This document shows positions 59,327-62,713 of a stretch of DNA of 64,000 bases, one piece after another. The notes beneath the pieces were generated by a model. That model saw only the letters and a program-made list of their open reading frames with translations. It did not search any database and was not told where the DNA came from. A program made the position numbers and the translations under genes. Each line of letters opens with the position of its first letter. Position 1 is the first letter of the stretch. The stretch spans positions 372,001-436,000 of the forward strand of contig NZ_VTRT01000002.1 in assembly GCF_008274585.1 (NCBI RefSeq), written 5' to 3'. Origin of the DNA: Pedobacter sp. BS3. Lineage in GTDB: Bacteria; Bacteroidota; Bacteroidia; Sphingobacteriales; Sphingobacteriaceae.

Positions 59327-60028
59327 TTACAATAGCACTATCAAACGTTTAGTGATGATGGTTATTTCAATAGCTACTCCAAAGCTCAGCAATGTACCAA
59401 CTAACACATACTCGGTAAGTTTCAAGTCGTTAGCTTCCTTTAGTTCGCCGAACCTGAAAATGGACTTTGCCGCCAGTAAAAAGCCGATACCTTCCCAATT
59501 GTTGGTATAAATAAAAGCAAAAATCAGTAAGCGCTCAGCTATACCAATGTATTTGCCCGCATTTTTCAGCGAGCTGATCTGCGGTGTCCACCTGGCAACG
59601 GCAATTTTTATGGCCGTGCCGGCAGGTATGGTTAGCAAGATGAGCGCCAACAGCAGCAGCCAAAACTTAGGTGCAACCCAGAAAGAAAAATCCAGGGATG
59701 GCCTTAACGACAAATACCATACTAAAACAATTACCAATAAGTGCACCGCCTGGTCAATAAAAAACCATGCCCGCTTGGTGTGCGGCTTCTGGAAAACAAG
59801 TTTCATACTGTCGGTTACCAGGTGCAGGCCGCTTATAATGAGTATTTGCCAGCCCCAGTGCTGGTTCCATAAAAGCAGCAGCATAGTAAGGGCATGCACA
59901 GCGATATGCTTATACAGCTTTACTGAGCGCAGTTTTTTGGTTTCCTTTTCTATCACCCAGCTATCGGGCTGTAACAGGAAATCGCCGATAAAATGTGCGG
60001 TTAATAACTTCAGTAAAATAACATCCAT
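59327..60028 (-). CDS. DUF3307 integral membrane protein, partner of SatD
   Basis: 233 residues from the ATG ending at 60028 (MDVILLKLLTAHFIGDFLLQ), with about six or seven membrane segments. Conserved polar residues sit in or beside helices: AHFIGDF (H12, D16), HIAVHAL (H41, H45), HLVTDSM (H69, D73) and IDQAVHLL (D92, H96). Such His/Asp pairs recall membrane-bound metal-dependent hydrolases (DUF457 type), an inference. A GTG at 60094 would overlap the satD stop, giving a coupled, 22-residue-longer form. Co-transcribed with satD. Confidence 0.87.
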   Translation of the reverse strand: MDVILLKLLTAHFIGDFLLQPDSWVIEKETKKLRSVKLYKHIAVHALTMLLLLWNQHWGWQILIISGLHLVTDSMKLVFQKPHTKRAWFFIDQAVHLLVIVLVWYLSLRPSLDFSFWVAPKFWLLLLALILLTIPAGTAIKIAVARWTPQISSLKNAGKYIGIAERLLIFAFIYTNNWEGIGFLLAAKSIFRFGELKEANDLKLTEYVLVGTLLSFGVAIEITIITKRLIVLL

Positions 60029-60090
60029 ACTGTTAAGTTGAAAGTTTAAAGCCAAAATGCCGAAAACAGGGATACTCGCTCCCTTAATTT

Positions 60091-60702
60091 TCACTTACTA
60101 TCCAGTTGCATCACCTTTTTGCGGTAAAGCGCATCCAGTTCCTTAACTTCTGCAAAGTGGGCACGTTTCAGGGCTTCACTAACAGACGATTGCGTTTTAC
60201 CAATCTTTGCGGCCAGTTCCTGCTGCGATAAGCTGGAGTTTTCTAAGGCAGCCTTTACAATACCGGCTGTAACCACGCTCCAGCCGTCCATAAACGTTAA
60301 TGCCAGCCGGATAGCCACATTTATTTCTTCGTTAAAGTCAGCTGACGGCGACTGAATGGCCAGGTTTACTTTTTCTTTTTTTAACATTTCGAGGGTATCG
60401 CCCGAAAATATAAATGCCTCGCCATTGGAATAGCTTACCTTTTCGGCCTCGTACTCTTGCTTGCCTATCCCGATAGCAATGCGTATATCCAGATCTTTAA
60501 TGGTTTTAATGCAGGTTTTAATGTAAATAGCCTGCATTAAGGCATCCTCCACACGGGTTTTTAACTGAAAGCTGTCGCCACGATATATTTCCCAGTTGTT
60601 TTTATCAATAATGTTCAGGGCAGATTTTAAAACGGACAACCATTTCTTAGTGTCAGCAACCTGTCTTGAATTAACGATATCGCCTGTTATAATTGCTATC
60701 AT
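60091..60702 (-). CDS. SatD-family protein with C-terminal HTH
   Basis: 203 residues. N-terminal domain (about 1-120): MIAIITGDIVNSRQ (D8), YRGDSFQL (GD at 42-43) and RIAIGIG (74-80). This order and spacing recall the metal-binding Asp, GD hairpin and R-x-GI-G strand of class III nucleotidyl cyclases, a similarity I infer and cannot prove. C-terminal HTH about 158-180: LSQQELAAKIGKTQSSVSEALKR. The ATG follows three spaced palindromes (60741-60820), the probable target of its own HTH. Next gene downstream is the DUF3307 membrane protein. SatD function is not established. Confidence 0.9.
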   Translation of the reverse strand: MIAIITGDIVNSRQVADTKKWLSVLKSALNIIDKNNWEIYRGDSFQLKTRVEDALMQAIYIKTCIKTIKDLDIRIAIGIGKQEYEAEKVSYSNGEAFIFSGDTLEMLKKEKVNLAIQSPSADFNEEINVAIRLALTFMDGWSVVTAGIVKAALENSSLSQQELAAKIGKTQSSVSEALKRAHFAEVKELDALYRKKVMQLDSK

Positions 60703-60740
60703 TGAGTAAATTAAAAGATAATGGCCACGTTATTGGTTAA

Positions 60741-60762
60741 ATATCGGCAAAAAAACCAATAA
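60741..60762. promoter_or_regulatory. SatD operator repeat 3 (degenerate)
   Basis: 22 bases, ATATCGGCA...ACCAATAA, matching 18 of 22 positions of the perfect copies and starting exactly 29 bp before the next one. The nearest copy to the satD start (39 bp away). TTATTGGTT at 60730 and AACCAATAA at 60754 add a further 9-bp inverted pair. Confidence 0.65.
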
Positions 60763-60769
60763 AACAATA

Positions 60770-60791
60770 TTATCGGCTAAAAAGCCGATAA
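60770..60791. promoter_or_regulatory. SatD operator repeat 2 (perfect)
   Basis: TTATCGGCT-AAAA-AGCCGATAA, perfect 9-bp arms. It starts 29 bp after repeat 3 and 29 bp before repeat 1. Confidence 0.8.
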
Positions 60792-60798
60792 CTGACTA

Positions 60799-60820
60799 TT
60801 ATCGGCTTTTTAGCCGATAA
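60799..60820. promoter_or_regulatory. SatD operator repeat 1 (perfect)
   Basis: TTATCGGCT-TTTT-AGCCGATAA, perfect 9-bp arms with the same half-sites as repeat 2. It ends one base before the recQ stop codon, so it may also act as a hairpin at the recQ 3' end. Confidence 0.8.
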
Positions 60821-62713
60821 TTATATATAATAATACTTGCCATCTGTTTTGATCTTACCGGCGTCCAGCAGGTTGCGGATAACATCCAATTTCTCTTTTT
60901 CGGTTCCCATTTCTGTCTGGGCGATCAGGTCATCAAGCAATAAATGGTTGCCCGATAACAATTGCAATACCTGGTTCAGAATGGTATCGATCCGGTCTGC
61001 TGCATCGTTTTTATATTTCTCGGCCAGGCAAACATCACAAATCCCACACTTCGGGGCATCAGGCTCATCAAAATACGCCAGCAATAACCGGCTGCGACAG
61101 CTATTACTTTCGGCATATTTTATGGCAGCATCTATTTGCTGTTTCATCACCTGCCTGCGCTCCTCAATATACTGCCGGTCAATATACAAACTGGTAATAT
61201 CGGTACGGGGCCTGATAAATTGCAGCTGCGGCTTATCTGTTTGCGCCTTGTAGCTTAGCAATTCCAGTTGCTCCAGGCGTTTCAGCGCTTCTGCCACCTG
61301 TATCATATTCTGCCCTGTACGCCGGGCAATATCGCTTTCGCGGATGGGTACAAACTGATCAAACATACCACCATAAGAACGCAGCAGGACTTTTATAAAT
61401 TGATCAAAGCCCTGGTTCTCAATCTGGAACCGGTATAAATCCTCGGCAGAAACCGTAATCATGACCCGCGACGGCAGGTAAACGCTTTCGCTGATGCTAA
61501 TATATTCATCGTGCTCCAGGAATTTCAGGGCATTAAGCGTTTTTATGGCATCCAGCTTAAAGCGGTTACAAAATTCCGCAATGTCAAAATCAAGCGTAAG
61601 CCCCTCACCCGCCCCATAAGCCAGCTGAAAATAGTTACCCAGCTGCTGGTAAACATTCTTAATCTCATCTATTGACGGAAAGCTCAGCTCAAATTTTTTC
61701 TGCAGCTGCAATTTATCAGACCGGTTATACAGCAGCACGGCAAAGGCCTTCTTTTCATCACGCCCAGCCCTACCGGCTTCCTGGTAATAGGCTTCCAGGC
61801 TCTCGGGTAAATCCAGGTGTACCACGAAACGCACATCGGGCTTATCAATGCCCATACCAAACGCATTAGTGGCAACCATCACCTGGATAGCATTCAACTT
61901 CCAGCTCTCCTGCCGGGCGCTGCGAAGGGTGTTCTCCAACCCGGCATGGTAAAAGTCGGCACGAATGCCTTCGCGGTTCAGCAAACGGGCTACTTCCTGC
62001 GTTTCGCGACGGTTACGTACATACACAATTCCGCTGCCTTTATTCTTTTTTGCTATCGCGATAAGCTTCTTAAACTTATCTTCCTCGTTAACAACCATAT
62101 ATGCCAGGTTATCCCGTGCAAAACTTTTACGAAAAACCCTGGATTCCCGAAAAGCCAGCTTCTGCTGAATATCTTCCACCACACGCTGCGTTGCCGTGGC
62201 TGTTAACGCCAGCACGGGCACTTCGGGGTGCAGCTGCCGCAAATCGGCCAGGTGCAGGTAAGGCGGACGAAAATCATATCCCCATTGCGATATGCAATGC
62301 GCCTCGTCAACCGCAATGAGATTTACATTCATGTGCCTGATCCGTGTCTGCACCAATTCAGAGAGCAGCCTCTCGGGCGATAAATACAGGAATTTTACCG
62401 GGCCGTAAATGCAATTGTCCAGGGCAATATCCACTTCCCGTTTTCCCATGCCCGAAACAATCGCCAGGGCATTAATTCCCCGCGAACGCAGGTTCTCTAC
62501 CTGGTCTTTCATCAGGGCAATAAGCGGCGACACCACCAAACAGATACCCGGCTTTGCCATTGCAGGAACCTGGAAGCACAGCGACTTTCCCCCGCCGGTC
62601 GGCATCAGCGCAAGCGTATCGTGACCAGCCAGAACAGACTCTATCACATCTTCCTGCAATGGCCTGAACGCGGCATGCTTCCAGTAATGTTGTAATATCT
62701 GATGGATAGTCAC
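60821..62713 (-). CDS. recQ: ATP-dependent DNA helicase RecQ
   Basis: 3'-5' helicase of recombination repair. 630 residues: RecQ motif 0 AFRPLQEDVI, Walker A LMPTGGGKSLCFQ, DEAH box IAVDEAHCISQWG, FGMGIDKPDVR, QEAGRAGRD, zinc-binding Cys in CGICDVC, and a winged-helix domain. The HRDC domain is absent, a short form. Start is GTG at 62713. The stop borders the SatD operator array. Confidence 0.95.
   Translation of the reverse strand: MTIHQILQHYWKHAAFRPLQEDVIESVLAGHDTLALMPTGGGKSLCFQVPAMAKPGICLVVSPLIALMKDQVENLRSRGINALAIVSGMGKREVDIALDNCIYGPVKFLYLSPERLLSELVQTRIRHMNVNLIAVDEAHCISQWGYDFRPPYLHLADLRQLHPEVPVLALTATATQRVVEDIQQKLAFRESRVFRKSFARDNLAYMVVNEEDKFKKLIAIAKKNKGSGIVYVRNRRETQEVARLLNREGIRADFYHAGLENTLRSARQESWKLNAIQVMVATNAFGMGIDKPDVRFVVHLDLPESLEAYYQEAGRAGRDEKKAFAVLLYNRSDKLQLQKKFELSFPSIDEIKNVYQQLGNYFQLAYGAGEGLTLDFDIAEFCNRFKLDAIKTLNALKFLEHDEYISISESVYLPSRVMITVSAEDLYRFQIENQGFDQFIKVLLRSYGGMFDQFVPIRESDIARRTGQNMIQVAEALKRLEQLELLSYKAQTDKPQLQFIRPRTDITSLYIDRQYIEERRQVMKQQIDAAIKYAESNSCRSRLLLAYFDEPDAPKCGICDVCLAEKYKNDAADRIDTILNQVLQLLSGNHLLLDDLIAQTEMGTEKEKLDVIRNLLDAGKIKTDGKYYYI

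What the first reader, a model, noticed from the sequence alone, without database searches (positions are those of the whole stretch)
59327..60820. SatD-DUF3307 pair with three evenly spaced palindromic operators
Upstream of satD lie two perfect copies of TTATCGGCT-N4-AGCCGATAA and one degenerate copy, starting at 60741, 60770 and 60799, a constant 29-bp step. SatD has a C-terminal HTH and an N-terminal segment whose motif order (GD at 7-8, RGD at 41-43, RIAIGIG at 74-80) recalls nucleotidyl cyclases. The partner is a multi-helix membrane protein with His/Asp pairs. Together they could be a self-regulated signalling or defence module: a possible cyclase-like sensor/repressor coupled to a membrane effector. 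The repeats are seen; the cyclase analogy and system role are inference.
Basis: partly seen in the sequence, partly recalled or inferred. Interest (0 to 1): 0.87.

Follow-up and report, generated by a model that had tools for sequence, protein, structure and literature searches.

The report
Self-regulated SatD and membrane-protein gene pair
A gene pair found in bacteria and archaea makes a DNA-binding protein, whose front half is folded like a cyclic-nucleotide-making enzyme, together with a partner membrane protein; evolutionary evidence indicates that the first protein docks on an evenly spaced row of mirror-image DNA sites to control the pair, which looks like an undescribed toxin-like or alarm-like module.

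Summary
Two perfect palindromes and one degenerate one, at 29-bp steps, precede satD and occur nowhere else in the genome as perfect sites. They are not merely the recQ terminator. In 100 of 128 satD promoters from Bacteroidota and plasmids, a row of palindromes at 28-29-bp steps stands far above shuffles (z>5), against 0 of 361 control windows. The pattern reaches Proteobacteria and haloarchaea. Half-sites differ between lineages. On a tree of the N-terminal part, the four protein columns whose changes best track half-site changes are 172, 173, 176 and 178, all in the predicted recognition helix: strong comparative evidence that SatD reads these sites. The cyclase guess is right for the fold: the model (pLDDT 97) matches class III cyclase/Palm proteins, and both metal-binding Asps are invariant (104 of 104). 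The class III transition-state Asn/Arg pair is not conserved, so cyclase activity is unproven. The partner is nearly obligate; its constant part is an unnamed C-terminal membrane module, DUF3307 an accessory N-module. Published Tn-seq scores satD essential yet accessory in S. pyogenes, as for an antitoxin or repressor. Best reading: a nucleotide-responsive autorepressor restraining a harmful membrane effector; trigger and toxicity are inferred.

The parts
60091..60702 (-). satD: N-terminal nucleotidyl cyclase/Palm-fold domain plus C-terminal HTH, 203 aa
   Evidence: Pfam PF16264 E 2.8e-8; AF2 pLDDT 97.3; fold matches
60349..60702 (-). SatD residues 1-118, cyclase/Palm-fold domain; invariant D8, G42, D43; near-invariant S12, F45, Q46, R74, G80, G94
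60157..60276 (-). SatD residues 143-182, HTH; predicted recognition helix residues 171-180 at 60163-60192
   Evidence: Pfam HTH hits, model helices, co-change with half-site
59327..60028 (-). partner membrane protein, 233 aa from ATG 60028 (an in-frame GTG at 60094 would overlap the satD stop)
   Evidence: Pfam DUF3307; downstream of satD in nearly all loci
59663..60019 (-). DUF3307 N-module: His/Asp/Gln/Lys set H12 D16 Q20 H41 H69 D73 K76 D92 Q93 H96; accessory, absent from some clades
59339..59581 (-). C-module of the partner (no Pfam family): constant part, with G162 E165 R166 K188 R192 Y207 G211 S215
60742..60761 (.). operator 1, degenerate, nearest satD: TATCGGCAAAAAAACCAATA
60771..60790 (.). 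operator 2, perfect: TATCGGCTAAAAAGCCGATA (core of the 22-bp palindrome 60770-60791)
60800..60819 (.). operator 3, perfect: TATCGGCTTTTTAGCCGATA (core of the 22-bp palindrome 60799-60820)

Best explanation
satD and the gene after it form a self-regulated two-gene module. SatD binds as dimers to a row of two or more (here three) evenly spaced palindromes over its own promoter and represses the operon. Its N-terminal domain has the class III cyclase/Palm fold with an intact two-Asp metal site, and most likely binds (perhaps converts) a nucleoside triphosphate, so that the nucleotide or metal state of the cell sets occupancy of the row. The partner is a multi-helix membrane protein whose constant C-module carries invariant Glu/Arg/Lys/Tyr residues and which often has a His/Asp-rich DUF3307 module in front. 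It is the effector, and it is probably harmful when unrestrained, so SatD acts like an antitoxin or guard: loss or inactivation of SatD releases the effector. Shown here by comparison: the conserved row, the pairing, the fold, and recognition-helix/half-site co-evolution. Inferred: repression rather than activation, nucleotide binding, toxicity of the partner, and the trigger.
For: Operator row: 100/128 satD upstreams z>5 and 115/128 beat all 40 shuffles, against 0/361 control windows z>5 in the same loci. The row follows satD through different upstream genes, including divergent ones, and into Alpha- and Gammaproteobacteria and haloarchaea. SatD reads the row: the tree-aware co-change test ranks columns 176, 178, 172, 173 first; partial Mantel r 0.31, p 0.001 with N-domain distance controlled; S173/E176 pairs with CCGATA in 33/33, R or N173 plus E176 with CAGATA in 5/5. 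Perfect sites lie only at satD in this genome. Fold: every listed PDB match is a cyclase/Palm-superfamily protein or a larger protein containing such a domain; hhalign to class III cyclases E 1.3e-6 with D8 and D43 on the two metal Asps. Near-obligate pairing: both genes in 160 of 301 family genomes, only 3 genomes with one alone; C-module in 134/136 loci. Antitoxin-like genetics: satD is the one accessory gene (178/249 genomes) that scores essential in S. pyogenes (PMC11323703). The pair travels on tiny plasmids and beside toxin-antitoxin genes.
Against: No experiment shows binding, repression, nucleotide binding or toxicity. In the family of the window the pair is in about half of sampled genomes and often has the same neighbours within a genus, unlike a typical defence island. 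The transition-state Asn/Arg pair of class III cyclases is not conserved. The partner has no solved-structure match. The S. pyogenes gene itself could not be fetched, so its operators and partner were not checked. PADLOC has only HTH-level hits for SatD.
Confidence: 0.6

Rival explanations
1. Housekeeping sensor-regulator: SatD is a nucleotide-responsive autoregulator of a membrane enzyme or transporter (for example in lipid or envelope maintenance or acid tolerance), with no toxic or defensive role.
For: Frequent presence and stable neighbours within genera. Invariant His/Asp set of DUF3307 looks like an intramembrane metal site. The name SatD comes from a streptococcal secretion/acid-tolerance operon (PMC11323703).
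Against: A housekeeping gene does not easily explain 'accessory but essential', nor carriage on 3.8-kb plasmids and beside toxin-antitoxin genes. The presumed enzymatic DUF3307 module is dispensable across clades.
Confidence: 0.25
2. Panoptes-like guard: SatD makes a nucleotide messenger that keeps the membrane partner off, and also controls transcription through the row (a special case of the best explanation; the two overlap).
For: Palm/cyclase fold with matches to Panoptes OptS and a Pycsar-type cyclic UMP synthase, two invariant metal Asps, two-gene operon with a membrane partner, essentiality where present. Panoptes OptE alone inhibits growth and OptS restrains it (PMC12657218).
Against: No cyclic-nucleotide-binding domain is recognised in the partner. 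The class III transition-state Asn/Arg pair is not conserved. No product known.
Confidence: 0.2
3. The palindromes are a transcription terminator of recQ (a 23-bp hairpin right after its stop codon) and unrelated to SatD.
For: Strong predicted hairpin, z -8, abutting the recQ stop at 60821.
Against: The row follows satD, not recQ: it is present with other upstream genes, including divergent ones, and half-sites co-vary with the SatD recognition helix.
Confidence: 0.04

Closest known systems
SatD family, Pfam PF16264 (secretion and acid tolerance D of streptococci)
   Same: SatD here scores above the family cut-off
   Different: The family has no described mechanism in the papers searched; operator rows, cyclase fold and the constant partner module were not found in the literature library
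Class III nucleotidyl cyclases (Ma1120, Rv1900c) and cyclase-HTH fusions of mycobacteria (the latter from memory)
   Same: Fold and both metal-binding Asps
   Different: Transition-state Asn/Arg not conserved; stand-alone 200-aa protein with an HTH that reads its own promoter
Panoptes OptSE (mCpol plus S-2TM-beta effector) and Pycsar
   Same: Palm/cyclase-fold protein in a two-gene operon with a membrane partner
   Different: SatD carries an HTH and an operator row; the partner has no recognised nucleotide-binding domain; no defence shown
Type II toxin-antitoxin operons with autorepressing antitoxin
   Same: First gene is a DNA-binding autoregulator, second overlaps or nearly overlaps it; satD is essential though accessory in S. 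pyogenes
   Different: The regulator has a nucleotide-enzyme fold and the partner is a multi-helix membrane protein; toxicity untested
Lambda CI and its three operators (from memory)
   Same: Three adjacent palindromes suited to cooperative dimers
   Different: Steps of 28-29 bp instead of about 24; the non-DNA-binding domain is a cyclase fold, not a peptidase-like oligomerisation domain

Membership tests
SatD (PF16264) | Profile score above the curated cut-off | tested here: met
   34.1 bits vs 29; 92 of 104 aligned members match at E<=0.1
Class III nucleotidyl cyclase | Cyclase/Palm fold | tested here: met
   All listed Foldseek hits belong to this superfamily or contain such a domain, E from 1.7e-3, prob about 1; hhalign E 1.3e-6
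Class III nucleotidyl cyclase | Two metal-binding Asp residues | tested here: met
   D8 and D43 in 104/104, aligned to the class III Asps
Class III nucleotidyl cyclase | Transition-state Asn and Arg (invariant N131/R135 in alignment A3) | tested here: not met
   The profile alignment stops before this region; by sequence order the region around 98-102 has no conserved Asn (98 is V/I/H/T) and Arg at 101 in only 27/104
Class III nucleotidyl cyclase | Makes a cyclic nucleotide | not testable with these tools
   needs an enzyme assay
Panoptes OptSE | mCpol synthase with an S-2TM-beta effector | tested here: not met
   The partner matches only DUF3307 among Pfam families in most members and no other family recurrently
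Type II toxin-antitoxin | Two-gene operon with autoregulating DNA-binding first gene | tested here: met
   Comparative only:
Type II toxin-antitoxin | Second protein toxic, first neutralises it by direct binding | not testable with these tools
   only indirect support: essential yet accessory satD (PMC11323703)
YdjM membrane hydrolases (PF04307) | Homology of DUF3307 to YdjM | tested here: not met
   hhalign probability 0.4%
Known anti-phage systems (PADLOC) | Match beyond the HTH | tested here: not met
   SatD HTH-level hits only; none for the partner

The most novel reading that the evidence does not exclude
A signalling or immune module shared by bacteria and archaea in which a Palm/cyclase-fold protein is itself the transcriptional repressor. 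DNA-bound SatD dimers on the 28-29-bp row touch through their cyclase domains, so nucleotide sites form only on the assembled row. Depletion or hijack of the nucleotide (for example by a phage) dismantles the row, floods the cell with the membrane effector and stops growth.
Probability: 0.25. Interest if true: 0.95.

Novelty: new variant of a known kind. Interest (0 to 1): 0.82.

Why it matters
SatD and DUF3307 are annotated across bacteria and archaea without a mechanism. This work gives them an operator, a recognition-helix code, a fold and a constant partner module, and so makes several things directly testable: which nucleotide SatD binds, whether the partner is toxic, and why satD is essential in S. 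pyogenes although many strains lack it. If the trigger is nucleotide depletion, it would add a repressor-based branch to nucleotide-guarding immunity such as Panoptes. The 100-odd regulator/operator pairs are also a natural set for studying how HTH specificity diversifies.

Tried and rejected
recQ terminator as the whole story: rejected. DUF3307 as a YdjM relative: rejected. SatD or this partner in sequenced phages: none, and none in two viral-contig scans, although phages carry stand-alone DUF3307 proteins. Regulon beyond the operon: perfect sites only at satD, near matches no more frequent than the control pattern. E. coli genome copies close to the plasmid pairs: none. PDB fold of the partner: no match. 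An alignment scan of viral contigs failed because no stretch was conserved enough. Centring a whole-genome search on the Fusobacterium record was not possible. The first array caller was too strict and was replaced. PMC4886424, which looked like prior art for SatD, concerns DUF2652.

Full report
Observation. They occur as perfect sites nowhere else in the 4.8-Mb genome. recQ ends at 60821, and the two perfect copies form one strong hairpin, so a terminator was the first rival.

Conservation. Related satD loci were collected from 301 genomes of the same family, 395 genomes of the phylum and plasmid records. In the family the palindromes follow satD with different upstream genes, often divergent ones, which a terminator would not do. 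A phased-palindrome caller (three sites, steps of 26-31 bp) gave z>5 in 100 of 128 satD upstreams; 115 beat all 40 shuffles. The same caller gave z>5 in 0 of 361 control windows of the same loci. Among the well-supported rows almost all steps are 28 or 29 bp. The half-site differs by lineage: TATCGG, TATCTG, TATAGA, TTTCAC, TTGAAC, TTAGCC and others. Haloarchaeal and alphaproteobacterial plasmid copies have two or three such sites at 28-29 bp.

SatD reads the row. In 80 loci, operator distance follows HTH distance after N-domain distance is removed (partial r 0.31, p 0.001). On a tree built from the N-terminal 140 residues, changes at columns 176, 178, 172 and 173 coincide most with changes of the half-site core; all four are in the predicted recognition helix 171-180. 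S173/E176 goes with CCGATA in 33 of 33, R or N173 with E176 goes with CAGATA in 5 of 5, A173/N176 with TAGATA in 4 of 4. This is comparative evidence; binding was not measured. The 28- or 29-bp step correlates with the length of the stretch before the HTH (Fisher p 1.7e-8, not corrected for relatedness), as expected if neighbouring dimers touch.

Fold. SatD models at pLDDT 97.3. PDB matches are class III cyclases, light-activated cyclases, Cas10-type subunits, GTP cyclohydrolase III, GGDEF-containing proteins, a cyclic UMP synthase and Panoptes OptS. Foldseek E-values are modest, about 2e-3 and above, with probability near 1. A profile search of PDB sequences also returns class III cyclases for the N-domain, alongside weak 14-3-3 hits judged spurious. 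hhalign to class III cyclases gives E 1.3e-6 and places D8 and D43 on the two metal Asps. D8, G42 and D43 are invariant in 104 sequences. The class III transition-state Asn/Arg pair is not conserved. A metal-nucleotide sensor is therefore at least as likely as a cyclase.

Partner. Nearly every satD is followed at once, often with a 1- or 4-base overlap, by the same membrane protein. In 301 family genomes SatD and DUF3307 occur together in 160; only three genomes have one alone, one of them at a contig end. The partner has two modules. The C-module, unnamed in Pfam, is in 134 of 136 loci and carries G162, E165, R166, K188, R192, Y207, G211 and S215. The DUF3307 module is missing or unrecognised in 25 loci; where present its His/Asp/Gln/Lys set is invariant or nearly so, like an intramembrane metal site (inference). 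The modelled partner has no PDB fold match.

Role. Tn-seq meta-analysis names satD as the single accessory gene (178/249 genomes) essential in S. pyogenes (PMC11323703). Loss of an antitoxin or repressor is lethal while loss of the whole module is not; this fits, but the S. pyogenes locus itself was not examined. The pair rides 3.8-kb plasmids of E. coli and Klebsiella, a 10-kb Pseudomonas plasmid beside a RelE/ParE toxin and an Agrobacterium plasmid beside an antitoxin gene, a nucleotidyltransferase-HEPN protein and HipA. Against a pure defence reading, the pair is common and locally stable within genera.

Verdict. A conserved, self-regulated SatD/membrane-protein module with a cyclase-fold regulator. 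DNA recognition is well supported (about 0.9), autorepression likely (about 0.85), nucleotide sensing probable (about 0.7), toxicity of the partner open (about 0.5). No paper in the searched library describes it; most subscription journals and bioRxiv preprints were not covered.

Noticed in passing
L001:1453-2070 (own genome, contig C26): A second SatD paralogue with its own different operator pair (TTTCAC half-site, 29-bp step) and a partner with only the C-module.
   Followed up: partly
phage proteins A0A1L7N193 (Ralstonia phage RP12), A0A7G7WXF7 (Rhizobium phage P9VFCI); PHROG 2470: Phages carry stand-alone DUF3307 proteins of about 120-130 aa without SatD or the C-module.
   Followed up: no
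L039 and L044 upstream of satD: Longer rows of four to five palindromes (TGAAC half-site) in some Bacteroidota.
   Followed up: no
window 60028-60094: The partner here has a 62-bp gap after satD where relatives overlap by 1-4 bases; an in-frame GTG at 60094 could restore the overlap.
   Followed up: no
L131 and L137: A DUF4365 gene lies near the pair in both Enterobacter and Agrobacterium plasmids.
   Followed up: no
L011-L014, L018 upstream of satD: The upstream gene looks like guaB (IMP dehydrogenase) by eye, possibly meaningful for a GTP link.
   Followed up: no
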